From: an uncultured Clostridia bacterium
GTDB taxonomy: Bacteria; Bacillota; Clostridia; Christensenellales; Borkfalkiaceae
Assembly: GCA_944362555.1 (NCBI GenBank)
Contig: CALVTL010000015.1
Coordinates: forward strand, 1-43,547
Direction: 5' to 3'
DNA length: 43,547 nucleotides
A program made the position numbers and the translations under genes. Every line of letters starts with the position of its first letter. Position 1 is the first letter of the stretch. This document shows positions 20,640-37,808 of this stretch, piece after piece. Under the pieces are notes generated by a model. That model searched no databases and had not been told where the DNA came from. It saw nothing but the letters and a program-made list of their open reading frames with translations.

Positions 20640-20640
20640 C

Positions 20641-23660: not shown

Positions 23661-23743
23661 CTTGTTACCTCGCAAAAAGTGTTCGGAAAAGAACAAGCGG
23701 CGGAGACGTATCTTCGCCGGCTTGTCAGGATCGTTATTCTGCT

Positions 23744-24973
23744 TTACTCTGCGGAAGTGAGTTCCGTGATCCCGTCGATGCGCACATCGAAATAAGGCGC
23801 AGAACGGAACTTGGATTCCATAAACACGCCGTTTTCGATCGCCTCCGTATCGGGCGTGAAGGCATCATCGGTATTCACGTCTGCCTTGTAAGAGGTGATG
23901 TGCTTGCCGTCCACGGTGAACTTGGAGCAGTCGAACACGTTCAGAGTCCCGTTCTCAAGTTTTGCCTTCACTTCGTCGAGCTTTGCCTGCGTGCCTTCGG
24001 CTGCCGCATTGCCGAGCTCGGTGACCGCCACAGCGCCGTTCTTCAGCGTACCCGTCCAATCCTTGGCGATCTCCTCATCGTTCTTCACGCAATCGATCAT
24101 ATACTCGAAGTAAGGAACCCAGTTGATGCGCGAGGAAATGATGAAGGTTTTGGGGCACTGCGCCGCCGTGCTGCCGTTGTAGGACACGTTGGGAACGCCC
24201 GCCGTCTCGCAGGCAGCGGGAGCGCCCATGGAGTCCGCGTGCTGAGAGATGAGCGCCGCGCCTCGGCTGATGAGCAGGTTCGCTCCGTCACGCTCGGCGA
24301 CCTCATCGTACCAACTGCTCGTATAGGTGACTTCCATGGAAACACTGACGTCCGTCTCCGCTTTGACCACCGACTGCGCGCCGAGGAAGAAGGAGGTATA
24401 GCCCGAAACGACTTCCGCATAGGGATAAGCGCCGACATACCCCATCTTGATGTTGCCTTCGGCGTCGAAGTTGTTTTCTTTCAGCTCCTTCGCCTCATAC
24501 ATTTCGACGAGCTTCATGCCTGCGGCGACGCCTGCAAGGTATCTGCCCTCATAGATGGAAGCAAAGGCATTATGGAAGTTATCAACATTTTCCGTGTGCG
24601 CAAGCGTGCCCGTCGCGTGGCAGAACTGCACATCGGTGAATTCCTCCGCCGCCTGCAAAACAAATTTTTCATGTCCGAAGGAATCGGCGAAGATGACATC
24701 GCAGCCCAGGTCGACAAGCTCCGCCGCCGCGTCGTAGCAGGCATTCGTCTCGGGGATGCCCGTCTTGATGATGAGGTGATCCTCGTCAATGCCCTTGTTG
24801 GCGCACGCCTTTTTGATGGCGTCCAGAAAGTTCTTGTCGTACGTCGATTTGTCGTCGTGCAGCGCAATGAAACCGACGGTGAGTTCCCCGTCGCCCTGCG
24901 CGCAGCCCGCAAGCGCACCCAGTCCCGCGACCGCCATGGTCGCCGCAAGCCCAAAAGCAAGCAACTTCTTCAT
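23744..24973 (-). CDS. BMP-family nucleoside-binding lipoprotein
   Basis: A 409-residue extracellular substrate-binding lipoprotein of the BmpA/PnrA family. The signal peptide ends in the lipobox LAGC with Cys at 24. The mature part shows VGFIALHDDKSTYDKNF, GCDVIFADSFGH, TGTLAHTENVDNFHNAF and MGYVGAYPYAEVVSGYTSF, the family's nucleoside-binding fold. It lies 71 bases after xpt, beyond a terminator, and precedes the ATPase. Expected to bind purine nucleosides. Confidence 0.92.
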   Translation of the reverse strand: MKKLLAFGLAATMAVAGLGALAGCAQGDGELTVGFIALHDDKSTYDKNFLDAIKKACANKGIDEDHLIIKTGIPETNACYDAAAELVDLGCDVIFADSFGHEKFVLQAAEEFTDVQFCHATGTLAHTENVDNFHNAFASIYEGRYLAGVAAGMKLVEMYEAKELKENNFDAEGNIKMGYVGAYPYAEVVSGYTSFFLGAQSVVKAETDVSVSMEVTYTSSWYDEVAERDGANLLISRGAALISQHADSMGAPAACETAGVPNVSYNGSTAAQCPKTFIISSRINWVPYFEYMIDCVKNDEEIAKDWTGTLKNGAVAVTELGNAAAEGTQAKLDEVKAKLENGTLNVFDCSKFTVDGKHITSYKADVNTDDAFTPDTEAIENGVFMESKFRSAPYFDVRIDGITELTSAE

Positions 24974-25023
24974 AATGTTTCTCCTTTCCCGATAAAAAAT
25001 ATAAAAAATTATCGTTGCCGAAC

Positions 25024-25057
25024 AAAAAAACCGCGCAGCAAACCCTATTGCGCGCGG
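25024..25057 (-). terminator. Attenuator-like terminator overlapping the xpt stop
   Basis: A 10-bp stem with one bulge (25031-25041 with 25048-25057) then seven T on the minus strand. It uses the last codons of xpt and would separate xpt from the transporter genes, allowing graded expression. Confidence 0.75.
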
Positions 25058-25620
25058 AAAACAAGGCTCTCGTCCGTCATGGCGTCCACGATGGCGAGAG
25101 ACTCGACACGGATCCCCTCGGCACGGAGTTTGTCCCCCGCGCCCTGGAACCCCTTTTCAATGGCGATGGCACAGCCGACGAGCTTCGCCCCCGCATTTTC
25201 GATGATGCGCATGAGCCCGCGCACCGCGTTCCCGTTGGCAAGAAAGTCGTCCACGATGAGCACGCGGTCGTTCTCGCCCACATAATCTTTGGCGACGGCG
25301 ATCTCGTACGTCTCCTTATGCGTATAGGAATAGACGGACGCCGTGTACACTTCCTTGGGCATATTGGCACTTCTGTGCTTTTTGGCGAACACGCAGGGAA
25401 CGTGCAGCGCAATGCCCGCCGCCACCGCAATGGCGATGCCGGAGGACTCCACCGTCAGCACGCGGGTGACGTTCTCGCCCGCATACAGGCGCGCGATCTC
25501 CCGCCCGATCTCCATGATGAAATCGGAATCCATCTGCTGGTTGAGAAAGCTCCCCACTTTGAGCACATTCCCCGGAAGAACGGTGCCTTCCGAGAGGATC
25601 TTTTCTTCAAGTGCCTTCAT
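25045..25620 (-). CDS. xpt: Xanthine phosphoribosyltransferase
   Basis: A 191-residue PRTase that converts xanthine and PRPP to XMP. The N-terminus MKALEEKIL, GSFLNQQMD and the PRPP loop VLIVDDFLANGNA are diagnostic for Xpt. The later IEKGFQGAG and C-terminal block are intact. It heads the purine cluster. I found no purine riboswitch in the ~40-base leader, unlike Bacillus xpt. A regular promoter is at 25653-25681. Confidence 0.95.
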   Translation of the reverse strand: MKALEEKILSEGTVLPGNVLKVGSFLNQQMDSDFIMEIGREIARLYAGENVTRVLTVESSGIAIAVAAGIALHVPCVFAKKHRSANMPKEVYTASVYSYTHKETYEIAVAKDYVGENDRVLIVDDFLANGNAVRGLMRIIENAGAKLVGCAIAIEKGFQGAGDKLRAEGIRVESLAIVDAMTDESLVFRAQ

Positions 25621-26021: not shown

Positions 26022-26049
26022 AAAAGAGGCACGCGTTTATGCCTCTTTT
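26022..26049 (-). terminator. Terminator of the nine-gene signalling operon
   Basis: A 10-bp stem (26022-26031 with 26040-26049), AAAAGAGGCA with its complement, ending in a T run on the minus strand, 28 bases after the last gene. Confidence 0.8.
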
Positions 26050-26077: not shown

Positions 26078-26974
26078 TCACTCGGGGATGCGCCAGCCGA
26101 ATTTTTCAAAATTCCCGAGCCAGCCCGCCGCATTCACGACGTAGCGGTCGGTGCCCGCGCTGTTCCATTTATTGTAGAGCCTTGTGAACCCGCCGTCGAC
26201 CAGAAGCCGCTTGCCGCCCTCGTCCGCATACGCCGTGACGACGTTGTTGTCGGAGGAGTACACGAGCGGCTTCAAAGGCCCCGTGAGGGTGACGTTGGAG
26301 ATGGTGATCCCCTCGTAAAAATTTGCGATGCCCGTCGAGATGAGGTGCCCCGCAACGATCCCCGCGCCGCGCCCCTCCTGCACGCCGATCACCCGATCGC
26401 CCCGATAGTCGCCCTGCATCCTGCTCCCGAACCACGCCCGCAGCACGGCGTTGACGTCGGCGAAGAAGGGGTCGTTGTCCGCCCAGAGATAGAGCCCGCG
26501 TCCCTGGTCGTAAAAGTGCTTCAGATCGCGGATGTTCGCCTCCGTGAGCGTGCGCTCGTTGCCGCTGATGAGCCACACCTGGCAGACGTCCTGCGTTGCG
26601 GCGGCAAAATTTTCGGGGAATTGTGCCGTGTAGTTCACCGTGAACCCCTTGCCCTCGAGTGCGCGGACGGGCCCCTGATAGCTCTCCCGCTTCCCGCAGG
26701 CATCCCACGAAGGGCACAGGTTGATGAGCAGGATCTTGTACCCCTTCATGCTGCCGTCCCGCAGCAGGTCGTAATTGGAGCCGTTGGGATTGCCGAAGGC
26801 GTCACGGGGCGCAGACTTCACGTCGTTCTGCCCCGCCCACTGCGTGTAAGGGAGCTTGACGCGCGTCTTTCTGCCCTCGCGGATCTGCTGCATGGGACAG
26901 CCGCAGCGGATGCACGCGGTGGATCCGTCCCCGACCGCCATCCCGCAGTCGGGGCAGATATATGTCTTTAACAT
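26078..26974 (-). CDS. Zinc-ribbon protein with amidotransferase-like domain
   Basis: A 298-residue protein, last gene of the signalling operon. The N-terminal zinc ribbon uses C7-P-D-C10 and C21-x2-C24-G-C-P. A central alpha/beta region (about 75-230) reads KILLINLCPSWDACG, VWLISGNERTLTEANIRDL and GRGLYLWADNDPFF. This resembles class I glutamine-amidotransferase or DUF4350-type folds; no convincing Cys-His-Glu triad is seen, so enzymatic function is doubtful. The C-terminal ~70 residues (VVTAYADEGGKRLLVDGGFTRLY) continue the fold. Its start overlaps the PP2C stop by 7 bases, with GAGGAG upstream. Confidence 0.6.
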   Translation of the reverse strand: MLKTYICPDCGMAVGDGSTACIRCGCPMQQIREGRKTRVKLPYTQWAGQNDVKSAPRDAFGNPNGSNYDLLRDGSMKGYKILLINLCPSWDACGKRESYQGPVRALEGKGFTVNYTAQFPENFAAATQDVCQVWLISGNERTLTEANIRDLKHFYDQGRGLYLWADNDPFFADVNAVLRAWFGSRMQGDYRGDRVIGVQEGRGAGIVAGHLISTGIANFYEGITISNVTLTGPLKPLVYSSDNNVVTAYADEGGKRLLVDGGFTRLYNKWNSAGTDRYVVNAAGWLGNFEKFGWRIPE

Positions 26975-29271
26975 GGTTTCTCCTCTTTGGAAAATGCGCT
27001 TTGCCCGACCGATCCCTCGGGCGCTTGGTTGGTTTGTTCTTGCTGCGGAACTTCCGCCGCCTGCTTCGGCTGTTCTGTCTGCTGTGTTACTTCTTCCGTC
27101 TGCTGCGGCTGTTCTGCCGTTTGCTGTGCGGGGGCGGACGGCGCGGGCAAGTCGGCGGGAGCTGCGAGCAGGGCGTCCCCTTCGCGGTCGTACACCTCCA
27201 TCTCCTGACGGTACTCCGCGAACGCGGGAAGGTCGGCGTCCCCCCTGTGGAGATAATACTTGCGGAAATCGGCGAGCCTGGACGCGGGGAAGATGCGGTC
27301 GATGCAGGACGTCGCCGAAGGCTCGCGGCGGAATACCTCGAGCGTGGCGTTCATCACGCCGGCGTCTTTGCCGAACCGCGCGACGAGGGTATCGGTTGCA
27401 AGGCGGCGCAGTTCGTCCTCGTCGACGTCGCCGCCCAGCACGCGCTCCATGTCCAGCTTTTCGATGAACGCGGCGGTGAACACCTCGCGGCGGCGGTCGA
27501 GAAAGCAGGTGATGTTGCCGCGGAACTTTTTGAAGGCGCTCTCGTACTCGCGCTCCGCGGCACGCAGCGCCTCCTCCTTGTCGTGGAGCATCCCGCGATA
27601 GGCGCCCCGATCCCTGCAATACTTCAACGCGCGGGCGACGAGGTCGGAATAGCCGTACTCGCGCTCCGCCTGCCGCGCCTCATCGCCGAGGTGCGGCTTT
27701 TCGTCCGTGAGGTCGCGCTCCAGCGCGGCGAGCGTTTTAAGCTCCTTGATGAGCCGGCAGCGCGCCCTGCTCCGCTCATGCGCCGTTGCGAGTGTGAAGG
27801 CGCCCTCGGGCGCGGCGTTCAGAAGGGCGAGGATGCGCGCCTGTTCCTGTTCGAGCTGCGCGCAGAGGCGCTCCGCCTCCGCATCCAGCCGACCGGCATC
27901 CTCCCCTGCCTCCCGTTCGCGGCGCAGGCGCTCGCACTTTTCCTCCCGTTCGCGAAGGCTCCCGACGAGCTGACCCAACCCGCCCGCGGGGAGCGTTTCG
28001 AGAAAGTTTGCACGGCAGCCCTCCTCATGAAGGCAGGCGAGCACGCGCTCTTTGAGCGCCTCTTTGCGCGTCTTGGCGCCCGAGGAGAGCTGCTTTCTGC
28101 ACTCCTCGACACAGGCAGCGATGTCCTCACGCCAGCGCTGTGTCAACAAAAAGTCCTCACGTTTGTCAAAATATGCGTCCGCGAGCGCGCGCACGATGTC
28201 GGGGAACTTGCTCTCGAAGCGGTCGCAGATGGACGCCGTGACCTGATGCTCGGGCTTTTGGATGAGCGAGAGGATGGAGGCGTAGTCACGGTAGCGGCTG
28301 TAGAGCGACGCGATGTGCTCCCGCCTTGCGGAGAGCATCTCTTTGAGCTGCGCGTACTCCTGCAGCCCGAACGCGCCCAGCGCCACGCTCGTATCGTCGG
28401 ACAGGTTGCCGAGATAGCGCTCCGAAAGGCGGCTTTTGAGCCGATCCCAGCTTTCGGCGGCAAAAATGTCCTCCAGAAGCTCCGCCTCCACGGGCAGCTC
28501 CGTCGACTTCCCGTAGGCGTCGAAGAAGCCGTCGCTCGCGCAGAACAGCACGAAGGGCTTTGGAAGGCGGTACTCCCGCACGCGGATGCCCGCGCTCCCC
28601 TCCGCGCTTAAATTGTTGGTCAGCAGCCCGCTCTCGTTCTCGTCGTCCGCGGAGAGCTTTTTCAAGCCGCCCGCGTCGAGCAGATAGCAGCGGGAATCGC
28701 CCGCCCACACGGCACGGACGACGCATTCCTTCTCCCCCTCCGACACAACGTGCAGGGCGGCGAACGTCGAGGGCAGGAGCGTCATGTCGGGATTGCTCAC
28801 CGTGAGCGAGAGCGCGGCGACGGTGTTCTTTAACCCCTGTTCGATGAAGGCGCCCAGCGCGTCGTAATCCGCGCGCGTCCACGGCACATCCCCCGCCTCC
28901 GCTCTGCGCGAGAGGACGAAGAAGGCAAAACGCGCCATCACGATGCGCGACGCCCAGCGCGCCGAGGTATTGACTTCGTCGCGGATGCAGGGCGCAAAGA
29001 TGTAGGAGAGATAGGAGAGCGCGCCCGAACCGTCCCCTTCCACGATATGGCGCAGAAGGCTGTAACGCGGATCGTGCAGCACGGGGAGCGCCTCGGGCAG
29101 GACGTACTCCAACACGGCGGAAAGCGATGCGCGCTTCTCCTCCGGCACGGCGTGCTTCATGCAGCCCGAGCCGCCCATGCCGTCGGCGACTGCCAGCCAG
29201 TCGGGGAGCACGAGCGGATAGACGTCCTCGTTATTGGGCGCGCTGATGTGAAATGCAAAGGAAGGGGTCAT
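26968..29271 (-). CDS. PP2C-type Ser/Thr phosphatase with long helical C-terminal region
   Basis: A 767-residue protein. The N-terminal 300 residues are a PPM/PP2C phosphatase: NNED (13-16), the metal-binding DGMGG (30-34), AGDSR (190-194), SDGFFD (246-251) and SDDTS (291-295). The next ~400 residues are charged and helical, including a coiled-coil-like stretch (about 440-490), and may form an adaptor or clamp. The last ~60 residues are a Pro/Gln/Thr/Glu-rich tail. It should reverse the kinase encoded just upstream; the ATG overlaps the kinase TGA (ATGA), so the two are made together. Confidence 0.85.
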   Translation of the reverse strand: MTPSFAFHISAPNNEDVYPLVLPDWLAVADGMGGSGCMKHAVPEEKRASLSAVLEYVLPEALPVLHDPRYSLLRHIVEGDGSGALSYLSYIFAPCIRDEVNTSARWASRIVMARFAFFVLSRRAEAGDVPWTRADYDALGAFIEQGLKNTVAALSLTVSNPDMTLLPSTFAALHVVSEGEKECVVRAVWAGDSRCYLLDAGGLKKLSADDENESGLLTNNLSAEGSAGIRVREYRLPKPFVLFCASDGFFDAYGKSTELPVEAELLEDIFAAESWDRLKSRLSERYLGNLSDDTSVALGAFGLQEYAQLKEMLSARREHIASLYSRYRDYASILSLIQKPEHQVTASICDRFESKFPDIVRALADAYFDKREDFLLTQRWREDIAACVEECRKQLSSGAKTRKEALKERVLACLHEEGCRANFLETLPAGGLGQLVGSLREREEKCERLRREREAGEDAGRLDAEAERLCAQLEQEQARILALLNAAPEGAFTLATAHERSRARCRLIKELKTLAALERDLTDEKPHLGDEARQAEREYGYSDLVARALKYCRDRGAYRGMLHDKEEALRAAEREYESAFKKFRGNITCFLDRRREVFTAAFIEKLDMERVLGGDVDEDELRRLATDTLVARFGKDAGVMNATLEVFRREPSATSCIDRIFPASRLADFRKYYLHRGDADLPAFAEYRQEMEVYDREGDALLAAPADLPAPSAPAQQTAEQPQQTEEVTQQTEQPKQAAEVPQQEQTNQAPEGSVGQSAFSKEEKPC

Positions 29272-30842
29272 ACGATATACCTCAATTTGCGCATCGTTCC
29301 GGCGCTCACGTCCTCCAGGGGTTCCCTGTCCGTGAACTCCACGCGGTAGCGGTTCTCCGCGCCGTATTTGACGCGCTGGATCTTTTTGACGCCGCGTTCC
29401 GCCAGAAATTCGTCGCTCGCGTACGCGCCATCGCCCGGCCAGGGCTTGTCGCTCTCGACGGGCTCAACGGGATTGCGCGTGGCGAGCCCTTCGGCGAGCA
29501 GCCATTCGTACCCGTGCGTGAAGGTGACGCCGGACGCCGTGACGATGGCGTAGCGGTGCCCGCCCGCGTTGGTGCGCTTGACCTCGGCATACCCCTTGGC
29601 GGCGATCTCCGCCGCGGGGATGAGGGTGATGTTGTGCTCCGCCCACGGCTCGGAGATCTCGGCAGGCTTGCGCACAATGTAGCCCGCGTCGATCGCCTCG
29701 TCGAGCGTGAGATACCGCTCGGTGTCGTCGGCAAGGCGGACGGCATATTTGAGGCGACCGCCGTCGTTGACGCAGCGGAAGGAGCGCACGCCGAGCGCGC
29801 GCAGTTCCTCTGCCGTGCGGCGCTCCGCCGAGCGACGGTGCGTCTCCCAGATGTCGGTAAAGGTCTTGACGTCCGCCCCCTTGTGGAAGGCGTCGGGCAC
29901 CGCCTCCTCGTCGCGCAGCACCGCCGCGACCTGCGCCGCCGTGGGGCGTGCGGAGGGCTCTTTGGCGAGCATCCAGTTGAGGAGAGAGATGAAGGTCGCG
30001 CCGCAGCCGTCGCCGATGCGCACGTCGAACTTTTTGTTGAGGATGACTTCCTTGCCCGCGGCGATGCACCGCCCCGCGGAGGAGCGTTCCTCCTCGACGC
30101 CCGGGAAGTCGCCCGTCCAGAGCTTGTGAAAGACGATGCCCAGCGTAAAGACGTCGGTCGCCGTCGTGACTTCGGGGCAGTCCTCCTCGCCGTCGATATA
30201 GGGAACGATCTCGGGGCTCTCGTAGTGGTCGGAATGGGGAATGCCCTCGGGATTTTTGGCGGGAGGCGCGGGGAAGGAGAGGTCGAAGTCGATGAGATAG
30301 GGCGTGAGCTTGCCGCCCTCAATGGCGGCGACGATGTTCCCGCTCATCACGTCGTCCGCGCCGCCCACTTTCAGGTCGCCGTGGATGACGCCGCAGGCGT
30401 GGAGCTTTTTTAAAAGCTCCGCGACGTCGGCGCAGAAGGCGATAAACTCCCCCGCCTCCATCTTCGTAAAATTCGCGTCCCGCGCGATGTTCTCCACATA
30501 TTGGCTGACGAGGACGATCCTGCCGTCGGCGACGAAGTGCTCCACCTCGGGCACGATGTGGTCCTTTTCCGCCGTCAGTCCGCCCTTTTCCACCATCAGC
30601 CTGCGCAGCGCCTCGCGGTCCGCCTGATACTTTTTGGCGGGGATGAGGTAGTAGTCGCGCAGCTCCTTGTCGGGCTGCTCCTTCTCCGTCGGGAAGCGGT
30701 ACTCGTTGTTGCGCTTGATAAACCAGCGCTTTCCGCCCTTGCGCCCGACGACGAACTCGCCGAGCCCCGCGGAATGCCAGTCGGGCACGCCCGCATCCTT
30801 TGCGATATATTCGGGTTCGATCTCATATCCGTGATACTGCAT
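29268..30842 (-). CDS. Ser/Thr protein kinase with three C-terminal repeats
   Basis: A 524-residue eukaryotic-like kinase. Candidate ATP Lys43 (FIKR), catalytic loop HGDLK (154-158), Asn169, a metal-binding DFD in place of DFG (185-187) and SPE (209-211) are in order. The glycine loop is short. Residues ~350-390, 417-455 and 483-522 are three related ~40-residue beta-rich units (x-R-x-x-Y-x-V pattern ending in a hydrophobic GY/GL), perhaps a ligand- or substrate-binding module. No membrane segment is present. GGAGG precedes the ATG. It is coupled to PP2C downstream and follows the VWA gene by 74 bases. Confidence 0.87.
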   Translation of the reverse strand: MQYHGYEIEPEYIAKDAGVPDWHSAGLGEFVVGRKGGKRWFIKRNNEYRFPTEKEQPDKELRDYYLIPAKKYQADREALRRLMVEKGGLTAEKDHIVPEVEHFVADGRIVLVSQYVENIARDANFTKMEAGEFIAFCADVAELLKKLHACGVIHGDLKVGGADDVMSGNIVAAIEGGKLTPYLIDFDLSFPAPPAKNPEGIPHSDHYESPEIVPYIDGEEDCPEVTTATDVFTLGIVFHKLWTGDFPGVEEERSSAGRCIAAGKEVILNKKFDVRIGDGCGATFISLLNWMLAKEPSARPTAAQVAAVLRDEEAVPDAFHKGADVKTFTDIWETHRRSAERRTAEELRALGVRSFRCVNDGGRLKYAVRLADDTERYLTLDEAIDAGYIVRKPAEISEPWAEHNITLIPAAEIAAKGYAEVKRTNAGGHRYAIVTASGVTFTHGYEWLLAEGLATRNPVEPVESDKPWPGDGAYASDEFLAERGVKKIQRVKYGAENRYRVEFTDREPLEDVSAGTMRKLRYIV

Positions 30843-30916
30843 GAATGTTTCCTCCTGTTCCGCCGATAATTTTCTGCCCTGCGCCCCTCACGGGAACACA
30901 GGGCAGACGGCTTATG

Positions 30917-31621
30917 TTAACGTCTTGCCTTGGCGGAGGCAGACTTTCCGATGAGGTCGATGATGTCGTCGAAGGAGATCTCCGAGAGCCCGTCGTCGCC
31001 GGCGACCGCCTTATACCAGGTGAGGTTCCATCTCTTGGCGAGCTCCTCGTACCTGGTGCCCGCGGGCGCGAAGATGACGAGACGCTTGGTGAGCTGGTTG
31101 AGGAATCCGACGCGCTCCTGGTCCTTGCCGATCCACATCTTTTCCAGCCCCGCCTCGTCCACCATGTCTTTGGGATAGACGGCGCTGTCGCTGCGCGCAC
31201 CGAGGGGAAGCGCGTCCGCGTCGGTGAAGAGCACAATGACCTGACGGTCGTCGTCGCCGCACTCGAACTTGCTCTGCATCGCATAGAAGAGCGCCTCGAG
31301 CCCGTTCTCGGGGCCGTCGCCGCCGCCCTGCGCCCTGACGCCGGAGAGGAACTTCTCATAGTCGGGCGTGTCCTGGTCGAGCAGGAAGAAGTCGCTGATC
31401 TGCATGGAGTTCTCGCCGTCGCAGCCGTAGTCGCGGAACACGATGACCTTGACGCGCGTTTCGTCGATGTCGCTGCCGAGGCGCGTCATCTTCTCGACGA
31501 GCATCGAATAGAAGTTGCGCGCGTGCTTTTTGACATTGTCGATGCAGTCGCTCATGCTGCCCGTTCCGTCGATGCAGAATACGATGTCGATACATCTGTT
31601 CTTTCTTACCATGTTGTCCAT
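30917..31621 (-). CDS. VWA-domain protein (TerY/VwkA-like)
   Basis: A 234-residue soluble protein made almost wholly of a von Willebrand A domain. The MIDAS motif DGTGS lies at 18-22 (IDIVFCIDGTGSM); VIVFRDYGCDG and the GGGDGPENGLEALFYAM block are of the type in VWA domains tied to protein kinases. It probably serves as a metal-dependent protein-binding scaffold. The start at 31621 (MDNMVRKNRC) has AAAAGGAG upstream; the in-frame extension is not VWA-like. With kinase and PP2C it forms a TerY-P-like triad. Confidence 0.85.
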   Translation of the reverse strand: MDNMVRKNRCIDIVFCIDGTGSMSDCIDNVKKHARNFYSMLVEKMTRLGSDIDETRVKVIVFRDYGCDGENSMQISDFFLLDQDTPDYEKFLSGVRAQGGGDGPENGLEALFYAMQSKFECGDDDRQVIVLFTDADALPLGARSDSAVYPKDMVDEAGLEKMWIGKDQERVGFLNQLTKRLVIFAPAGTRYEELAKRWNLTWYKAVAGDDGLSEISFDDIIDLIGKSASAKARR

Positions 31622-31662
31622 AATGTTGCTCCTTTTGTATAAAATAATTTTTTTGTCAAAGT

Positions 31663-32523
31663 TTAACGGTTCTTCTCCACCGCGCGGTAGCTCACGTCGA
31701 TCGCCTCGGCGATCATGCAAGCCGTCCTGCGCGGGGAGGGATTGCTCATGTACTCGGAAAACCCCTCCGCCACAAATTCGGCGGCGCTCGTCGACGCGTA
31801 GCGCGAGAGCGCCATGGTGATGCGGTTCTTCCCCATCTCCTCAAACCGAACGGCGAAGGCGGGGTCTTTGCTCGTGCCGCAAAGGTAGTCCAGAAGGTGC
31901 CCGATCTCGTGATAGATGACGGCGGAGACGGACGCGCAGCCGATCGGAGAATGCTTTGCCCTGACCGAGGACGCAAGCTCCTCTTTGACCTGCAGAAAGC
32001 GCTGCGTGCTGAAATCCGCCTCATCGAGGAGGATGCCGTCCACGAGCCCCATGCACGAGATCGCCTCGGCAAGGATGTTGGAGCCGTCCCCCTCCTTCCG
32101 CTCCGCGACGAGCTCCCCGACCGTCTGACCGAGGGAGCGCGCCAGCGCGTCGTCGCAGATATGCTGCACGCCGAGCGTATGGAGCGTGTCCGCGTCGTGC
32201 TCCGAGAGCCTGCGCAGCATCCGCACATACCCCCCGCGCGAGCCGAGATAGCACATCTTTCCGCGCAGACAGGGATAGCGGTAGAGGGCGGTGACCGCAC
32301 AGTTGATGAGGATCTTTGCCGCCGAGACGTTGAGCCCCGAAAAGTCGCACATATCGCACAGCCCGTACTTTTTGACGAGCGCGCGCATCTCCCCGAGGGA
32401 ATATGCCTCCTCCGCCTGCTCGTGCAGCCGCTCCTCCGAGCAGCGCATCACGAACCGCCGCTGCCCCCTTACGTCGAGGAGCTCCTGCTGCACGGGATCG
32501 AGATGAAATCGGATGGTCCTCAT
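31663..32523 (-). CDS. HEIGH-motif zinc metallopeptidase-like protein
   Basis: A 286-residue protein. The zinc-peptidase motif HEIGH is at 205-209 on a helix, followed at about 40 residues by AAEFVAEGFSEYM (249-259), whose Glu residues could supply the third ligand as in gluzincins. The N-terminal ~200 residues are mixed alpha/beta with six or more Cys and no family I recognise. No signal peptide, so it would act in the cytosol. It starts 122 bases after the YbjN pair and precedes the VWA gene by 41 bases. It may be the effector of the operon, but this is inference. Confidence 0.65.
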   Translation of the reverse strand: MRTIRFHLDPVQQELLDVRGQRRFVMRCSEERLHEQAEEAYSLGEMRALVKKYGLCDMCDFSGLNVSAAKILINCAVTALYRYPCLRGKMCYLGSRGGYVRMLRRLSEHDADTLHTLGVQHICDDALARSLGQTVGELVAERKEGDGSNILAEAISCMGLVDGILLDEADFSTQRFLQVKEELASSVRAKHSPIGCASVSAVIYHEIGHLLDYLCGTSKDPAFAVRFEEMGKNRITMALSRYASTSAAEFVAEGFSEYMSNPSPRRTACMIAEAIDVSYRAVEKNR

Positions 32524-32645
32524 ATTTGCTCTTGCTCCTCGTTCGATCGTGAGAACAGTATACTACGCCGCAGCCCCTCTCCGCACCCGAAAATTGCCCA
32601 CGGGTGTGCGGCTTTTTCCCCATTTATGGAGAGATCCCGCAAAAT

Positions 32646-33113
32646 TTACAACTCGTCCGCCGTGATGTCCTCGGGCGCAAGGACGCCCTTTGCGACCATC
32701 AGAAGTTTGTCGTTGTATTCGTCCACCGTCCGGCAGGCGATGGCGACCATATATAATAGAAGGGCGGGCGAGATGAGGCTGTCGCGGAAGGTCGCGGTGA
32801 GGCGGAAGCGCACGGTGCCCGTTTTGTAGTCATAGTCAAAGCTGCCGTCGGCGAGCAGATAATTGATGCAGGACGTGGCGATGGCGCCCTCCACCCGCTT
32901 GTCCCGCCCGAACAAAAAGGGCAGCGTGGAGAACAGCTGCACGACCTCGCGCTCGGCGTCGATCGCCATGACGAACGACATGGGGATGTCCTCCCCCCGA
33001 TAGTCGAACGTGATGACGAGATCGTCCGGGTGCTTTTCATACTTCCAATGCCGCTCGTCGAGCGCCTTGCACAGCGTCTCGAATACGGCTTGCGCCTGTC
33101 TTTGGTTTCCCAT
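32646..33113 (-). CDS. YbjN-like protein, paralog b
   Basis: A 155-residue alpha/beta protein with the YbjN/sensory-transduction pattern: an N-terminal helix (VFETLCKALDERHWKYE), strands ITFDYRGEDIPMSFVMAID, then SFDYDYKTGTVRFRLTATFRD and a final helical region. It is clearly related to the gene just upstream (shared SFDYDY-x-TG-x-x-xFR-x-T-x-x-FRDSLI). Such small domains often bind partner proteins or act as chaperones. GAGGTG precedes the ATG. Confidence 0.65.
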   Translation of the reverse strand: MGNQRQAQAVFETLCKALDERHWKYEKHPDDLVITFDYRGEDIPMSFVMAIDAEREVVQLFSTLPFLFGRDKRVEGAIATSCINYLLADGSFDYDYKTGTVRFRLTATFRDSLISPALLLYMVAIACRTVDEYNDKLLMVAKGVLAPEDITADEL

Positions 33114-33121
33114 GTTTCACC

Positions 33122-33598
33122 TCATGCGATAAAATCCGCGACTTCGTCGCAGTCCATATCGTTCCCGTTCACCCGCAGGAACTTATCGTTATACGCGTCC
33201 ACCGCAAGGCAGGCGAAGTGCACCATGCCGCGCAGCGCGTTCGCGGCGATGAGGCTGTCGCGGAAGCTCACCGTGATGCGGAACAGGATGTCGCCCGTGT
33301 TGTAATCGTAGTCGAAAGAGCCGTCCACGAGCCCGTTGTTCGCCCGCGAGACCGCCACCGCCATCTCCCTTCTGCGCTCCTTTTCTACGCAGAAAGGAAG
33401 ACGGGAGATGAGCGATATGAGCATCCGCTCCGCGTCCACCTCGATGTCGAGGGGGATGGGCAGGTCCTCGCCCTGCACGCCGCTCTCGATGGTGAGCTCC
33501 TTCTCGTCCGCGTCGTACGTCCAGCCGTCCGCATCGAACGCCGCGCACAGCGAACGGAACACCTCTTTTGCCTGTTTATACTGTCTTTCGTCCGACAT
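33122..33598 (-). CDS. YbjN-like protein, paralog a
   Basis: A 158-residue paralog of the next gene, 8 bases apart, probably from a tandem duplication. It shares LCAAFDADGWTYDADEKELTI, the bipartite beta core SFDYDYNTGDILFRITVSFRDSLI and the closing AVDAYNDKFL helix. Identity is low enough for distinct partners. AAGGAG precedes the ATG, 44 bases after the AAA gene. Confidence 0.65.
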   Translation of the reverse strand: MSDERQYKQAKEVFRSLCAAFDADGWTYDADEKELTIESGVQGEDLPIPLDIEVDAERMLISLISRLPFCVEKERRREMAVAVSRANNGLVDGSFDYDYNTGDILFRITVSFRDSLIAANALRGMVHFACLAVDAYNDKFLRVNGNDMDCDEVADFIA

Positions 33599-33641
33599 AA
33601 TTTCTCCTTATCCCGCAGGGGCGCGCCCTGCCGTCTGAACG

Positions 33642-35756
33642 TCAGAATCCCAGCCGCAGTTTTTTGGGCAGCGAGACGGCGAAATCCTTCTCCGCGCTCG
33701 CGTGTTCAAAGTCCTCTTTGGTGAGCGTGACGGTCTGCTTTCCCGCAAGCTGGCAGCGCATGGCTGCCTTCGCCCACGTCCTTTCAAAAATATTGCGCAC
33801 GAAGCGCGCGTTGCTGAACTTCTTCGCCGCAAGGAATTCGTCGGGCAGCGCCATAAAATACGCCGTCGCGGCGGGCAGGAGCTGCTCGTCGCAGGCAAAG
33901 TGCCCGCGCACCATGGAGGCGAAAATTTCGCCGAGCTGCTCGCGCGTGAAGTTGGGGAATTCCAGCGTGTAGGGCATTCTGCTCGCCAGCCCCGCGTTGC
34001 CCTCCATGAGGGTCGCCATCTCGTCGGGATAGCCCGCCATGATGACCACGAAGTCGCTGCGGTGGTTCTCCATTTCGGCGATGAGCGTATCGAGCGCCTC
34101 CCTGCCGTAGTCGCGCGAGCCGTCGTCGCCGCGGTAGAGCGAATACGCCTCGTCGATAAAGAGCACCGAGCCGTAGGCGTCGCGGCAGATGCTCGCCGTC
34201 TTGGGCGCCGTCTCCCCCACATACCTGCCGCACAGATCCCGCCCCGCGCACTCGAAGAAGTTGCCGATGCGCAGAACGCCGCGCTCTTTTAACATTTTGC
34301 CCAGGATGCGCGCCACCGTCGTCTTGCCCGTTCCGGGATTGCCCACGAAGCGCATATGCAGGCAGGGGCGCTCGCCGCCGCTTTGAAGGGCGAGCTCGAT
34401 CTGCGCGACGATCTCGGCGATCTGCCGCTTGACGCTCTCGCTCCCCACGAGACGGGAGAGCATCTCCTCCCCCGTGACGCCCGCGGGCTGCTCGCGTGCG
34501 CACAGCTTTTTGGCGTCCCTTCCGCCAATGACGGTGTCCTGCGTCCCGCGGCGGGCGTTTTGGAGCTCCTTCTGATAGACGAGCTCCTTGACGACCTTTT
34601 TGACGGTGTTGATGCCGTAAAACCTGCCGTCGCTCTTTTCCTCGGTGATGCGCTCCGAAAAGCAGTCCCACGCCGATTTTGTGAGGCTGAAATGATAGCG
34701 CTCCATCTCCGAACGGGCGAAGCGGCGGATCTCCTCCTGTCCGAAGGGCGGAAAGGAGACCGTTCTCACGTTGAGCAGATCGCCGATGGAGTAGCGGATG
34801 CGCGCCAGAACGTCCTTCTCCACAAAGGGCACGCGGAACACGACGATGGCGCTCTCCGAATGCTTTTCGACAGTGCGCAGAAAGTCCTTGAAGGCGAGGC
34901 TGTCCGTACGCCCCATCCGCTCGCTGATGTCGATGCACACCAGCCCGACGCGCCCCCTGCTCCCCGACCAGAGCGCGCGCCTGGCGTCGCGGAAGGCGTC
35001 GTCATCGTCGCCGTGCCCGAGCTTTTCCTCGCGCACGCCGCCCATTTTGCACAGCCCCGTCTCGCCGATGAGCCGCGCGAGCAGGGTAAGATAGGTCGTG
35101 AGCCCGCACCCGTCGCCGATGGAGAAGAGGTAGCACTGCCCCAGAAAGACCTCCTGCGTGCCCGTGCGGACGATCTCGGGCGCAATGTCGGCGATCTCGC
35201 GCGCGAGCGCCTTGAACTCCTTCGCGCCGACGAGCGCCTCGATCTTTGCAAGGGTGGCGGCGGCGGACGCCGCGTCCGCGCTCCCCCCTTCTTCGCCCTC
35301 GTCGTCCTCGTCGTCCTCGAACTCTTCCTCGTCGTCGTCCGGGCCGAAACTCGCCCGGAGCCTTCTGAGGAGCTCCTGCCGGCGCGCTTCCAGCGCTTTG
35401 CGGCGCGCCTCGTTCTCGTCGTCCGTGTCCGCGTCATCCTCGTCTGCGTCGCTCTCGTCCGCCTCTTCTTCGGGAGCCTTCTCGTCCGCATCCTCGTCGG
35501 TCTCCTCCGCGATGGTGAGCGCGGACGACTCCTCCGGATAGAGGGCGTTGAAGGCGTCGCAGATGCGCTGCTTCGCCTCCGCCGCGGACATGGCTGCCCC
35601 GTCGAAGGTGACGGAGAGTTCCGTGAACGTCCCCTCGCCGCACTCGAACCCGAGCGCCGAGAGCTTTGTCCGAAGGGCGGAAACGGGAAGCTCCGCGTCG
35701 TCGCGGTGCGAGAGCACCCACGTTCCGTCAAATTGCAGTTCCAACGTTTTCTTCAT
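33642..35756 (-). CDS. Tandem AAA protein: degenerate domain plus CbbX/SpoVK-like AAA+ ATPase
   Basis: A 704-residue protein. An N-terminal domain (1-80) is followed by a strongly acidic Asp/Glu linker (84-160). A first AAA-like unit (about 175-400) has a P-loop without its Lys (IGDGCGLT, 213-220) and a weak Walker B (VCIDISE), so it is likely inactive. The second (about 435-704) is intact: GNPGTGKT (472-479), VLFIDEAYSL (531-540), an arginine in LASRMPY near 593 and a sensor-2-like NARFVRN, as in CbbX/SpoVK remodellers. It should work as a ring-shaped protein remodeller, cytosolic. The second gene of the operon. Confidence 0.87.
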   Translation of the reverse strand: MKKTLELQFDGTWVLSHRDDAELPVSALRTKLSALGFECGEGTFTELSVTFDGAAMSAAEAKQRICDAFNALYPEESSALTIAEETDEDADEKAPEEEADESDADEDDADTDDENEARRKALEARRQELLRRLRASFGPDDDEEEFEDDEDDEGEEGGSADAASAAATLAKIEALVGAKEFKALAREIADIAPEIVRTGTQEVFLGQCYLFSIGDGCGLTTYLTLLARLIGETGLCKMGGVREEKLGHGDDDDAFRDARRALWSGSRGRVGLVCIDISERMGRTDSLAFKDFLRTVEKHSESAIVVFRVPFVEKDVLARIRYSIGDLLNVRTVSFPPFGQEEIRRFARSEMERYHFSLTKSAWDCFSERITEEKSDGRFYGINTVKKVVKELVYQKELQNARRGTQDTVIGGRDAKKLCAREQPAGVTGEEMLSRLVGSESVKRQIAEIVAQIELALQSGGERPCLHMRFVGNPGTGKTTVARILGKMLKERGVLRIGNFFECAGRDLCGRYVGETAPKTASICRDAYGSVLFIDEAYSLYRGDDGSRDYGREALDTLIAEMENHRSDFVVIMAGYPDEMATLMEGNAGLASRMPYTLEFPNFTREQLGEIFASMVRGHFACDEQLLPAATAYFMALPDEFLAAKKFSNARFVRNIFERTWAKAAMRCQLAGKQTVTLTKEDFEHASAEKDFAVSLPKKLRLGF

Positions 35757-35813
35757 CGTATTTCCCTTGTCTGTTTTTTTGCATACGTTTGTATTATTTC
35801 GGGACGCCGCGCT

Positions 35814-37649
35814 TTACAGCGCGACTTCCAGCCCGTTGTCGATGATATACGAGCACCAGATGCCGTTTTCGACCAACTCCTCGCGCGCGACCTCGCGCAC
35901 GAATTTGCGCACCTCGTCCACGGGGCGATGCTTGTTGCGGATGTCCTTCCAGCGCGCCCACGCCGAGGCGTAGAGCGCCATCATTTTGCGGTTATCGGAT
36001 GCCTTTCTGTCGTACGAGAGCTTGCCCAGATAGCTTGAGAAGAGCAGGGACGCCGCCGTCGCCGTTCCGATGACGATGATGCCCAGGCTGCGCCAGGCAA
36101 GCCCGCCCGCCATGTCCCCCTCCCAGAACCACGTTCCGCCGCTCGCATGGACAAAACAGGTGGCAAGTTCGAGGCAGAACACGACGGCATAGATGGCGAC
36201 GGACAAAATTTTGATGCCCGAGGAGATGGTGCGATAGAGCTTTGCGCGCGCCTTGTTCTTCTCGACGCGGTCGGAATGATAAGCGAGCTGCCCGCGCGGC
36301 TTTTCCTCCTGCTCGCCGATCCATGTCTGCATCACCCTGTCCGACGGGATGAGCAGTTTTTCGGACGGATACAGGATGTCGAAGGTGCGCAGCGCCTTGG
36401 AGACCCATACCATGTCCGACTTCTGCGTCCAGGAATACAGTTCGCAGATGCACTCGTGATACTCCGACTGCCCGTCGCCGCCCACCGTGTCCTCCGACTC
36501 GGCGGCGTTCACACACATGGTGGCATAGAATTGGATGCGCAGCGCCTCGGCGAAGGCGCGGTAGCCGACGTAGCGTTCATGCACCTTTTTACGCTTTCCG
36601 TAGCCCGTCACGGCGAGCAGCGCGCAGAGCGCGGCGGCGCACAGATAGATCATGTAGATCTGCTGGGCGTCGTCGTAGAGCATGAAAAAGAGCGCGACGA
36701 GCGTCCCCAGACAGGCGATGAGCAGCAAAAAGGCGTTGTATTTCTTCTGATTGACGCTGTAAGAGAGCGCGTCCGCCTTGATATAGTGCCGCCGCAGCGC
36801 CCTGCGGTAGCCGTCCAGCTCCTCTACGTTGTCCCAGAGCTTGACGGCGTTCGGATTGACCTCCGGAAGGGAGGCGTTGTATTCGTCCGTTTTTGCGACA
36901 ATATCGCACACATACCCCGTCGGCGCGTCCGACATGAGGTAATCGCCCCAGGGCTCTCCCACCTTTTCGCGCTCCCCTTCCGCGAAAGCATACTTGCTCG
37001 CAAGCCACTTCCTCTTGTCCTGCGCGGGCGCAGCGTTTGCACTTGCCGTGGAGATCCACAACACGGCGCTGTCGTTGATGCAGCCGGGGCGGACGAGATG
37101 CTCGCGCGAGAGATAGTTCTGTTCGAGGGCGTAGCGCACCACTTCCGCCGTGCCGCAGCCGAAATCGGTGTGCGGCTCGCCGCCGTCCCAGAGCGCCAAC
37201 AGAATATGGCAGTTGGACGCCATATAGATGCCGAGCTGGCGGTACTCATAGTCCGCATCCTTGATTTGGACGGCGTTCTGCAGCCACGGCTTGTTCACCT
37301 CCACATCGGGCGCAATGATGACGCGCTCGGCGCCCTCCAGATATTTTGCAAGTTCCTTCCTGGCGTCGGGGTCATCAAAACTCTCCTGATAGCGCTCCGC
37401 GGGGCAGGGCAGCAGCGCGTAAATTTTGATGCCGAGATCGATGGCGACCTCCGCGCACAGCGTGTCCGCGCCCTCCGCAAAGGCGTTGAGCATGACGACG
37501 GGCGTGTTTTTGCACATCGCCCCGATCTCGAGGAGCGCCGCCTTTACCTCCTCTTTCAGGCGCGGGATGTCCTCCGGAAGGAGCTTTCTGTGCCCCGTGA
37601 CGCCCACGATGATGGGGATCTTGTCCTCTTGGGTGAATGTTTCCTGCAT
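35814..37649 (-). CDS. SLOG-domain sensor with SLATT-like membrane region
   Basis: A 611-residue protein, first of the operon. The N-terminal ~200 residues form a SLOG/LOG-type Rossmann domain: VGVTGHRKL (16-23), AFAEGADTLCAEVA (56-69), YALLPCP and the later ALWDGG (152-157), suggesting binding of a nucleotide signal. After a ~100-residue linker come two hydrophobic hairpins (about 305-350 and 480-540), four segments in all. The stretch YVGYRAFAEALRIQFY (360-375) matches the pattern seen in SLATT/DUF4231 pore-forming-type effectors. ATG 37649 has AGGAG at 8 bases; a TTG upstream has none. It lies 57 bases before the AAA gene. Confidence 0.72.
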   Translation of the reverse strand: MQETFTQEDKIPIIVGVTGHRKLLPEDIPRLKEEVKAALLEIGAMCKNTPVVMLNAFAEGADTLCAEVAIDLGIKIYALLPCPAERYQESFDDPDARKELAKYLEGAERVIIAPDVEVNKPWLQNAVQIKDADYEYRQLGIYMASNCHILLALWDGGEPHTDFGCGTAEVVRYALEQNYLSREHLVRPGCINDSAVLWISTASANAAPAQDKRKWLASKYAFAEGEREKVGEPWGDYLMSDAPTGYVCDIVAKTDEYNASLPEVNPNAVKLWDNVEELDGYRRALRRHYIKADALSYSVNQKKYNAFLLLIACLGTLVALFFMLYDDAQQIYMIYLCAAALCALLAVTGYGKRKKVHERYVGYRAFAEALRIQFYATMCVNAAESEDTVGGDGQSEYHECICELYSWTQKSDMVWVSKALRTFDILYPSEKLLIPSDRVMQTWIGEQEEKPRGQLAYHSDRVEKNKARAKLYRTISSGIKILSVAIYAVVFCLELATCFVHASGGTWFWEGDMAGGLAWRSLGIIVIGTATAASLLFSSYLGKLSYDRKASDNRKMMALYASAWARWKDIRNKHRPVDEVRKFVREVAREELVENGIWCSYIIDNGLEVAL

Positions 37650-37691
37650 TCTGCGTCTCCTTCGTGTTCCGTTCAAACAAAAACCGATAAC

Positions 37692-37734
37692 ATTATAACA
37701 CCCTTATTATAACACACCCCCCTGCCGATTGCAA
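37692..37734 (-). promoter_or_regulatory. Promoter of the nine-gene signalling operon
   Basis: Minus-strand TTGCAA (37734-37729), a 17-base spacer, TATAAT (37711-37706). A second TATAAT lies at 37697-37692. The -35 is inside an imperfect hairpin (CCCCC, one mismatch, TGC stem; 37718-37739), a possible operator. Confidence 0.7.
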
Positions 37735-37808
37735 GGGGGTACGTTCAAAAAAAATTACAACTTATTCTTATCGATTTCATACGCCTTCATACGCCCGCCT
37801 CGCGGCGG

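What the first reader, a model, noticed from the sequence alone, without database searches (positions are those of the whole stretch)
26078..37740. Nine-gene operon joining a SLOG sensor, AAA remodeller, protease-like protein and kinase/PP2C/VWA triad
One promoter (37706-37734) and one terminator (26022-26049) bound nine same-strand genes: SLOG/SLATT-like, tandem AAA, two YbjN-like, HEIGH metallopeptidase-like, VWA, Ser/Thr kinase, PP2C and zinc-ribbon/amidotransferase-like. ATGA coupling of kinase and phosphatase and short gaps elsewhere point to one machine. Kinase, PP2C and VWA recall the known TerY-P triad; SLOG and SLATT-like domains are tied to nucleotide-signal conflict systems. I do not know of this exact combination. 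Hypothesis: a nucleotide or stress signal at the membrane protein triggers phospho-control of the AAA protein and protease.
Basis: partly seen in the sequence, partly recalled or inferred. Interest (0 to 1): 0.88.

Follow-up and report, generated by a model that had tools for sequence, protein, structure and literature searches.

The report
Modular SLOG-channel, TerY-P-like stress operon
A Clostridia-type bacterium carries a nine-gene operon that joins a predicted nucleotide-sensing membrane protein to a protein-remodelling ATPase, a protease and a kinase/phosphatase switch; relatives carry the same parts in overlapping combinations, which points to a composite defence or stress-response system.

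Summary
Nine co-directional genes (37649-26078, minus strand), spaced -7 to 122 bp, lie between a promoter-like site and a strong intrinsic terminator. Domains: SLOG + 4-TM SLATT-like (AlphaFold pLDDT 89.8; Foldseek to DprA/ShosA/LOG), tandem AAA (only the second P-loop intact), two YbjN, HExGH zincin, VWA, Ser/Thr kinase, PP2C, zinc-ribbon protein. The amidotransferase label for the last is unsupported.

The grouping is not chance: overlapping subsets recur in order. AAA-YbjN-YbjN-VWA-VWA-kinase-PP2C-zincin occurs in two other genomes (one cut inside the AAA), AAA-YbjN(s)-VWA(s)-PP2C-kinase in three more, SLOG-AAA-YbjN-YbjN in two, VWA-kinase-PP2C-zincin-TIR/LRR-SLOG in two. The exact nine-gene set was seen only here; its halves have different closest relatives, so it looks like a fusion of two cassettes.

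Best reading: a composite, TerY-P-like conflict or stress system in which a nucleotide signal and a phospho-switch control an AAA/YbjN remodeller, a protease and a membrane effector. Parts and linkage are shown; signal, targets and anti-phage role are inferred. TerD in sister loci makes a general stress role a serious rival. Novelty: new variant of a known kind.

The parts
37706..37734 (-). promoter-like site TTGCAA-17-TATAAT, extended -10
   Evidence: consensus scan; seen
35814..37649 (-). g1: SLOG domain (about 10-240) + SLATT-like region with four TM-like segments (306-324, 331-349, 481-499, 521-539)
   Evidence: AlphaFold pLDDT 89.8, pTM 0.90; Foldseek to DprA, ShosA, LOG; DUF4231/SLATT_1 matches below cut-off; hydropathy; 36 homologous loci
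33642..35756 (-). g2: tandem AAA; N-terminal P-loop without the Walker A lysine (GDGCGLTT from 214), C-terminal AAA intact (GNPGTGKT 472, FIDEAY), SpoVK/CbxX-like with AAA_lid_6
   Evidence: leucine 219 in place of the lysine is invariant in 10 of 10 aligned sequences
33122..33598 (-). g3: YbjN-like, first copy
   Evidence: PF10722 22.4 bits, cut-off 22
32646..33113 (-). g4: YbjN-like, second copy
   Evidence: PF10722 22.4 bits, cut-off 22
32524..32645 (-). 122-bp seam between the two cassettes; inverted repeat and a TATACT seen by eye; no promoter found by the scan
31663..32523 (-). g5: zincin-like metallopeptidase, HEIGH (205-209) and downstream E249/E253/E257
   Evidence: H205, E206, G208, H209 and the three glutamates invariant in 9 of 9 aligned sequences; no Pfam family above cut-off
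30917..31621 (-). g6: stand-alone VWA with MIDAS-like DGTGS
   Evidence: VWA_4 37.0 bits, cut-off 27
29268..30842 (-). g7: Ser/Thr protein kinase (HGDLK, DFD)
   Evidence: PF00069 64.9 bits
26968..29271 (-). g8: PP2C phosphatase with long C-terminal extension; overlaps g7 by 4 bp
   Evidence: motifs NNED, VADGMGG, AGDSR, DDTS; SpoIIE match 23.9 bits, below cut-off 25
26078..26974 (-). g9: zinc-ribbon protein with an alpha/beta region of unknown function
   Evidence: Zn_Ribbon_1 18.1 bits, below cut-off 25; conserved alignment of 4; model unreliable
26022..26049 (-). intrinsic terminator

Best explanation
The operon is a composite, TerY-P-like conflict or stress system built from two shuffled cassettes. 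Cassette I (g1-g4) is a SLOG-SLATT membrane protein with an AAA remodeller and two YbjN chaperone-like adaptors; cassette II (g5-g9) is a zincin, a VWA/kinase/PP2C phospho-switch and a zinc-ribbon protein. Proposed working: the SLOG domain binds a nucleotide-type signal made during infection or stress (in relatives perhaps by a neighbouring TIR protein) and changes the state of its four-helix membrane part. Kinase and PP2C, scaffolded by VWA, set the phosphorylation state of operon proteins and so the firing threshold. The AAA hexamer, with a non-hydrolysing first ring and an active second ring, uses the YbjN pair to recruit and unfold a target, and the zincin cuts a released or remodelled protein; the end result is membrane permeabilisation or growth arrest. 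Shown: domain folds and active-site motifs, operon layout, recurrent linkage. Inferred: the signal, phosphorylation targets, hexamers, what the AAA and protease act on, pore formation, and the benefit against phage.
For: Fold: g1 N-terminus matches SLOG proteins (DprA, ShosA, LOG; Foldseek prob 0.97-1.00, best E 4e-3) and phage SLOG proteins; four TM-like segments. Linkage (same-strand runs with gaps under 400 bp; loci had been picked by one of four query genes or the importer): VWA+kinase+PP2C together in 34 of 37 VWA runs; zincin with the triad in 14 of 14 zincin runs; AAA with YbjN in 27 of 44 AAA runs; AAA with the triad in 6 (window, L027, L028, L030, L201, L225), YbjN with the triad in 7 (also L029); SLOG with AAA and YbjN in 3 of 36 SLOG runs (window, L078, L125); SLOG with triad and zincin in 3 of 36 (window, L120, L121). 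L225 (same genus) is HTH-AAA-YbjN-YbjN-VWA-VWA-kinase-PP2C-zincin; L201 (another family) is the same from a contig-cut AAA on. In L120/L121 a TIR gene lies between zincin and SLOG (Pfam TIR_2 + LRR for L120; by motif for L121). A TIR-like motif is shown near g1 homologs in 17 of the 36 named loci (loose motif; Pfam-checked for L120, L129 and the L078/L116 locus). Patchy presence (PP2C in 14 of 251, g1 in 16 of 251 family genomes) fits an accessory system. [quoted passage not shown]
Against: No phenotype is known. Flanking genes in the window look like housekeeping with no convincing PADLOC match. No TIR or other recognised signal-making enzyme lies in the window operon (TIR domains lie on four other contigs of the genome). 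SLATT matches are below curated cut-offs and the second TM pair is not detectably homologous to the first. The nine-gene set was not found elsewhere; in 33 of 36 SLOG runs there is no AAA/YbjN and in 33 of 36 no full triad (some lie at contig ends, and L128 ends in the start of an AAA). No relative was found in IMG/VR with g1 or g2 profiles.
Confidence: 0.5

Rival explanations
1. A Ter-type general stress or envelope-stress system, not a phage-defence system: the phospho-triad, AAA/YbjN and zincin maintain proteins under metal, oxidative or envelope stress, and SLOG-SLATT is a ligand-gated ion pathway.
For: Sister loci carry an N-terminal adaptor fused to TerD (L028, L029, L030, L159 at triad or kinase loci; L081 beside AAA; PF02342 E 7e-41 to 1e-45). 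A similar adaptor is fused to a VWA with weak TerF-like matches in L203 (L205 has the like Pfam result) and, in L030 7484-8584, to a g9-like C-terminal region (44% over 108 aa to the TerD protein's adaptor), which ties g9 to the Ter set. Transglutaminase-like and RanBP-type zinc-finger genes also occur. No known defence gene is evident in the flanks searched.
Against: The own genome has no TerD. TerY-P triads have measured anti-phage activity (PMC7699616, PMC10889362, passages read). g1 homologs repeatedly have TIR-like genes nearby.
Confidence: 0.28
2. Two independent accessory cassettes that became neighbours: g1-g4 and g5-g9 work apart and merely share a promoter.
For: Closest relatives differ: g1-g4 to L128/L125, L078/L116 and L082 (50-69%), g5-g9 to L017/L018 (45-87%; L018 lacks g5); in L017, L018, L078, L082 and L125 the other half is not in the stretch fetched (L128 ends inside the AAA). 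The largest gap (122 bp) falls at the seam.
Against: Both halves are also joined in L201 and L225 and, with kinase/PP2C order swapped, in L027, L028, L030 (L029 from YbjN on); SLOG is separately joined to triad and zincin in L120 and L121.
Confidence: 0.17
3. A Thoeris-like TIR/SLOG pathway in which a TIR enzyme elsewhere in the genome makes the signal for g1, and the rest only tunes it.
For: Five TIR_2 matches on four other contigs of the genome; TIR genes near g1 homologs in L078, L120, L129 (Pfam) and, by motif, others.
Against: No TIR gene within the operon; no SIR2 domain in g1; the trans partner is a guess.
Confidence: 0.2

Closest known systems
TerY-P triad (VWA + PP2C + Ser/Thr kinase), stand-alone anti-phage module and CoCoNuT companion
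   Same: Same three gene types, tightly coupled; all three present in 34 of 37 VWA runs.
   Different: Kinase carries no Pfam zinc ribbon or OB fold; the zinc ribbon is a separate gene g9; no PADLOC model hits g6 or g8; combined here with SLOG-SLATT, AAA-YbjN and zincin.
Type III-A CoCoNuT operons with a SpoVK-like tandem AAA between VWA genes (PMC11090510, section 10 read)
   Same: TerY-P with a tandem AAA of which only the C-terminal ATPase keeps its Walker motifs.
   Different: No McrB GTPase, helicase or HEPN among the nine genes by Pfam; YbjN pair and SLOG-SLATT instead.
SLOG / SLATT nucleotide-conflict systems and Thoeris
   Same: SLOG fold joined to a membrane part; homologs near TIR proteins.
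   Different: No SIR2 or macro domain by Pfam, no TIR in the window operon; a phospho-switch and a remodeller are linked instead.
ARG-centred systems with vWA and YbjN-like TY-chaperones (PMC9503650, section 3.8 passages seen)
   Same: vWA with YbjN-superfamily chaperones; one sister locus has a PARG gene (L028).
   Different: No ADP-ribosylglycohydrolase, rhodanese-phosphatase or Nudix/WYL regulator among the nine genes by Pfam.
GAP1-N2 systems with kinase, PP2C and stand-alone vWA (PMC7159879, passages seen)
   Same: Same triad inside a conflict system that can carry SLATT.
   Different: No GTPase found among the nine genes.

Membership tests
TerY-P triad | adjacent VWA, PP2C and Ser/Thr kinase genes | tested here: met
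   g6-g7-g8, gaps 74 and -4 bp
TerY-P triad | kinase fused at its C-terminus to a zinc ribbon or OB fold (PMC11090510) | tested here: not met
   no such domain in g7 by Pfam; hence called TerY-P-like only
Ter system | TerD-family protein in the genome | tested here: not met
   PF02342: 0 of 1 own genome, 92% complete; present in sister loci
SLOG superfamily | SLOG Rossmannoid fold | tested here: met
   model pLDDT 89.8; Foldseek DprA 3uqz prob 1.00, E 4e-3; ShosA, LOG; no Pfam SLOG model hit
SLATT | 2TM SLATT domain above curated cut-off | tested here: inconclusive
   DUF4231 21.8 bits against 24.7, NCBIfam SLATT_1 23.5 against 41; four TM-like segments
Thoeris | TIR ThsB plus ThsA effector in one locus | tested here: not met
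   no TIR in the operon; TIR on other contigs
CoCoNuT type III-A | McrB-like GTPase, CnuH helicase, CnuE nuclease genes | tested here: not met
   none among the nine genes by Pfam
SpoVK (stage V sporulation protein K) | TIGR02881 above cut-off | tested here: not met
   235.7 bits against 422.95: a relative, not SpoVK
YbjN | PF10722 above gathering score | tested here: met
   22.4 bits each, cut-off 22
zincin metallopeptidase | HExxH with a downstream glutamate | tested here: met
   invariant in 9 of 9 aligned sequences; activity not testable here
any phage-defence system | protection against phage | not testable with these tools
   needs an experiment

The most novel reading that the evidence does not exclude
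A nucleotide-sensing SLOG membrane channel is put under the joint control of a TerY-P-like kinase/phosphatase switch and an AAA-YbjN remodeller with its own protease. In this view the SLOG channel is a swappable output (or input) of a recurrent phospho-controlled AAA-YbjN core, and TIR-LRR, TerD, PARG and transglutaminase genes are alternative plug-ins seen in sister loci: a combinatorial prokaryotic immune or stress network that unites Ter and SLOG/TIR signalling.
Probability: 0.3. Interest if true: 0.78.

Novelty: new variant of a known kind. Interest (0 to 1): 0.6.

Why it matters
TerY-P triads protect against phage, but what they switch is, to my knowledge, not known. Operons in which the triad sits with one AAA-YbjN remodeller, one protease and one predicted channel name a short list of testable targets. 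It also links two signalling worlds usually treated apart, SLOG/TIR nucleotide signals and Ter-type phospho-signalling, in a group of bacteria whose records here are nearly all metagenome-assembled or uncultured by title.

Tried and rejected
Amidotransferase-like g9: no Pfam or PDB sequence match and an unreliable model (pLDDT 44, 4 sequences); left as unknown alpha/beta. Two SLATT copies in g1: profile comparison of the two TM halves gave probability 0.6%; not claimed. PDB sequence searches with g1 (profile), g4, g5 and g9 gave nothing relevant. Viral carriage: IMG/VR scans with g2 and g1 profiles found no relative; plasmids: g1 only a 160-residue match in 4 Agrobacterium plasmids, g8 none; phages: the VWA matches 2 unannotated records, one over 93% of the query (not followed up). 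RNA elements: no Rfam family in the window at gathering scores; in L017, L018, L125, L204, L159 only one tRNA, so no riboswitch was found.

Helper HTH in the window: the HTH gene that precedes many triad loci has no convincing match in the window (tblastn best E 0.11). Purine-salvage link: an xpt / PnrA-type importer operon borders the system in the window, L125, L159 and L204; a neighbour-recurrence control (top 25 families printed) shows at least six other flank families shared by two loci and does not print the xpt family (the window's copy fell outside the flank counted), so I treat this as a possible insertion site, not a function. Gene calling: the first callers mis-called some loci and were replaced by a self-trained codon model; even so the AAA of L087 was missed and L208 gave no gene call of interest. 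A kinase label in L142 in a SLOG run was not checked and is not counted as a triad.

Rows dropped before counts: L116, L122, L124 duplicate L078, L080, L079 and were left out; L153-L165 (picked by the importer gene) were left out but present. Fetched for context: all 13 other genomes with a PP2C match; 8 of the 15 other family genomes with a g1 match; 29 of the 30 other order genomes with a g2 match; 18 of the 32 with a VWA match (two more, G099 and G010, were already held); 16 of the 18 other genus genomes with a g2 match; 13 of 17 with the importer gene, of which 12 show what lies upstream of xpt.
Full report
Observation. The window is contig C15 of a 1.8-Mb, 60-contig genome, 92% complete. 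Nine minus-strand genes fill 37649-26078 with gaps of 57, 43, 8, 122, 41, 74, -4 and -7 bp. A promoter-like site precedes the first, and a 12-pair hairpin with a U run, -15.7 kcal/mol, z -3.88, follows the last. The grouping and all but one of the domain labels stand.

What the proteins are. g1: the AlphaFold model (35 sequences, pLDDT 89.8, pTM 0.90) has an N-terminal Rossmann-like domain that Foldseek places with DprA, ShosA and LOG (no hit at E <= 0.001, best E 4e-3, prob 1.00), that is, SLOG; four TM-like segments follow, the first pair matching DUF4231/SLATT_1 below the curated cut-offs. g2: tandem AAA; the first P-loop reads GDGCGLTT with leucine for the Walker lysine, invariant in 10 of 10 aligned sequences, the second is GNPGTGKT with an intact Walker B; nearest named families are SpoVK and CbbX, below cut-off. 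g3 and g4: YbjN just above the cut-off. g5: HEIGH plus downstream glutamates, invariant in 9 of 9; its Pfam matches (ATLF 16.8 bits against a cut-off of 27.4; Peptidase_M90 12.5 against 26.2) are below cut-off and say little more than zincin. g6: VWA. g7: kinase with HGDLK and DFD. g8: PP2C motifs with a long C-terminal extension. g9: a zinc-ribbon start and an unassigned alpha/beta region.

Is it chance? I collected loci by four main routes: PP2C in 251 family genomes (14 hold it, own included); g1 in the same set (16 at E <= 0.001, of which 4 genomes, own included, over nearly the full length) and in named GTDB genomes (36 loci, by title Clostridia-type records and one Erysipelotrichales MAG); the g2 N-half in 297 order genomes (31) and in 103 genomes of the genus (19); VWA in 297 order genomes (33). 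In same-strand runs VWA, kinase and PP2C go together in 34 of 37 VWA runs, the zincin is with the triad in 14 of 14, and AAA is with YbjN in 27 of 44. The counts are conditional on the query genes, since each locus was picked by one of them; but the other genes were free to be anywhere in genomes of roughly 1,700 genes (my estimate from genome size).

The joins that matter. (a) AAA-YbjN-YbjN in front of a triad with zincin: L225 (same genus; HTH-AAA-YbjN-YbjN-VWA-VWA-kinase-PP2C-zincin) and L201 (another family; contig begins inside the AAA). (b) AAA-YbjN(s)-VWA(s)-PP2C-kinase: L027, L028, L030; L029 from YbjN on, at a contig end. (c) SLOG-AAA-YbjN-YbjN: L078 and L125; L128 ends in the start of an AAA. 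(d) triad-zincin-TIR-SLOG: L120 and L121 (TIR_2 and LRR confirmed by Pfam in L120). In G110 the triad-zincin-TIR locus (L022) and the SLOG locus (L080) both stop at contig ends and may be one operon; inferred. The window joins all of these. Its exact set was not met again in these searches.

Two cassettes. Best matches of g1-g4 lie in L128/L125, L078/L116 and L082 (50-69% identity), those of g5-g9 in L017/L018 (45-87%; L018 lacks g5). The largest gap (122 bp) is exactly at this seam. GC3 is even over the nine genes (0.82-0.88), so by that measure neither half is a recent import.

Surroundings. Of 14 flanking window genes searched by profile, those named are ordinary: xanthine phosphoribosyltransferase, a PnrA-like (Bmp) binding protein, ABC ATPase and permeases, TetR, aldo/keto reductase, epimerase, metallo-beta-lactamase/flavodoxin; PADLOC on 10 of them gave one weak 22-residue match of the TetR protein to mad1. 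In relatives the gene upstream of xpt is mostly a different one (12 loci seen), and in one of them (L159) it is the end of a kinase-transglutaminase-TerD locus.

Mechanism. SLOG domains bind or cleave nucleotides, SLATT is a predicted pore-forming effector, YbjN belongs with type III secretion-type chaperones, and TerY-P is proposed to be a phosphorylation switch (PMC7159879, PMC9503650, PMC11090510: passages, and section 10 of the last). TerY-P gives anti-phage protection (PMC7699616, PMC10889362: passages). Hence the model: signal to SLOG, phospho-set threshold, AAA/YbjN remodelling, zincin cleavage, membrane effect. Only the parts and their linkage are shown. The TIR partner seen near g1 homologs (17 of 36 named loci by a loose motif) is missing in the operon; TIR domains lie on four other contigs of the genome, and a trans signal is a guess.

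Defence or stress? Sister loci carry TerD fused to an N-terminal adaptor of about 110 residues (L028, L029, L030, L081, L159). A similar adaptor precedes a VWA with weak TerF-like matches (L203; 25% identity, E 2e-8) and, in L030 7484-8584, a g9-like region (44%): g9's C-terminal part thus takes the place of TerD in one relative, which ties g9 to the Ter set. Transglutaminase-like proteins and a PARG also occur. The own genome has no TerD. This keeps a Ter-type stress role open.

Novelty. Library searches for the combination (open-access PMC full text only) found no paper holding YbjN, vWA and AAA together (11 papers with three of four terms), none with TerY among those holding three of SLOG, SLATT, TerY and PP2C (1 paper), and two papers with three of YbjN, SLOG, SLATT, TerD and SpoVK, neither with SpoVK. 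Papers with only two of the terms were not all looked at. The nearest found is the CoCoNuT paper (TerY-P with a SpoVK tandem AAA). The original Ter survey (Anantharaman 2012) was not read and could contain relatives; I know it as cited in PMC11090510 and from recall. I rate the operon a new variant of a known kind.

Noticed in passing
window 19662-25620; L125 1505-7335; L204 2706-8651; L159 7318-13287: A xanthine phosphoribosyltransferase + PnrA-like binding protein + ABC importer operon directly borders the system on the same strand in four genomes: the system is upstream of it in two (window, L159) and downstream in two. L017 and L018 instead have a xanthine/uracil-type permease (Pfam for L017, similarity for L018) right after g9. 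Possible insertion site; other neighbours also recur in pairs.
   Followed up: partly
L159 6168-7082; L028 15853-16770; L029 1326-2243; L030 6482-7396 and 7484-8584; L081 8127-9044; L203 10250-11116; L205 11598-12470: A family with a similar N-terminal adaptor and swapped C-terminal domains: TerD, VWA (TerF-like) or a g9-like region.
   Followed up: partly
L120 8149-9960; L112 6047-8152; L129 5712-6878: TIR-LRR proteins near g1 homologs or g1-like SLOG genes, an arrangement that recalls plant receptors.
   Followed up: partly
L025 2297-5607; L125 13053-16951; L127 6545-9821; L149 4430-8362: A recurrent neighbour module: protein of about 530 aa and a VirD4/TraG-type coupling ATPase (Pfam in L125, L127); in L125 also an FtsK-gamma-domain protein (Pfam), in L149 by similarity.
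   Followed up: partly
L201 10682-11800; L225 526-1647: Radical-SAM-like proteins (judged from the N-terminal sequence, not searched) downstream of the triad-zincin operon; the cluster recurs in 5 of 107 loci.
   Followed up: no
L028 14004-15843: Transglutaminase-like and microbial PARG genes directly after the kinase of an AAA-YbjN-triad locus.
   Followed up: no
phage record MT836186.1, 2118-2774: A 40%-identical VWA relative over 93% of g6 in a 12-kb faecal phage record without annotation.
   Followed up: no
L204 18614-19899: A tRNA followed by a recombinase gene beyond a triad locus, a possible integration boundary.
   Followed up: no
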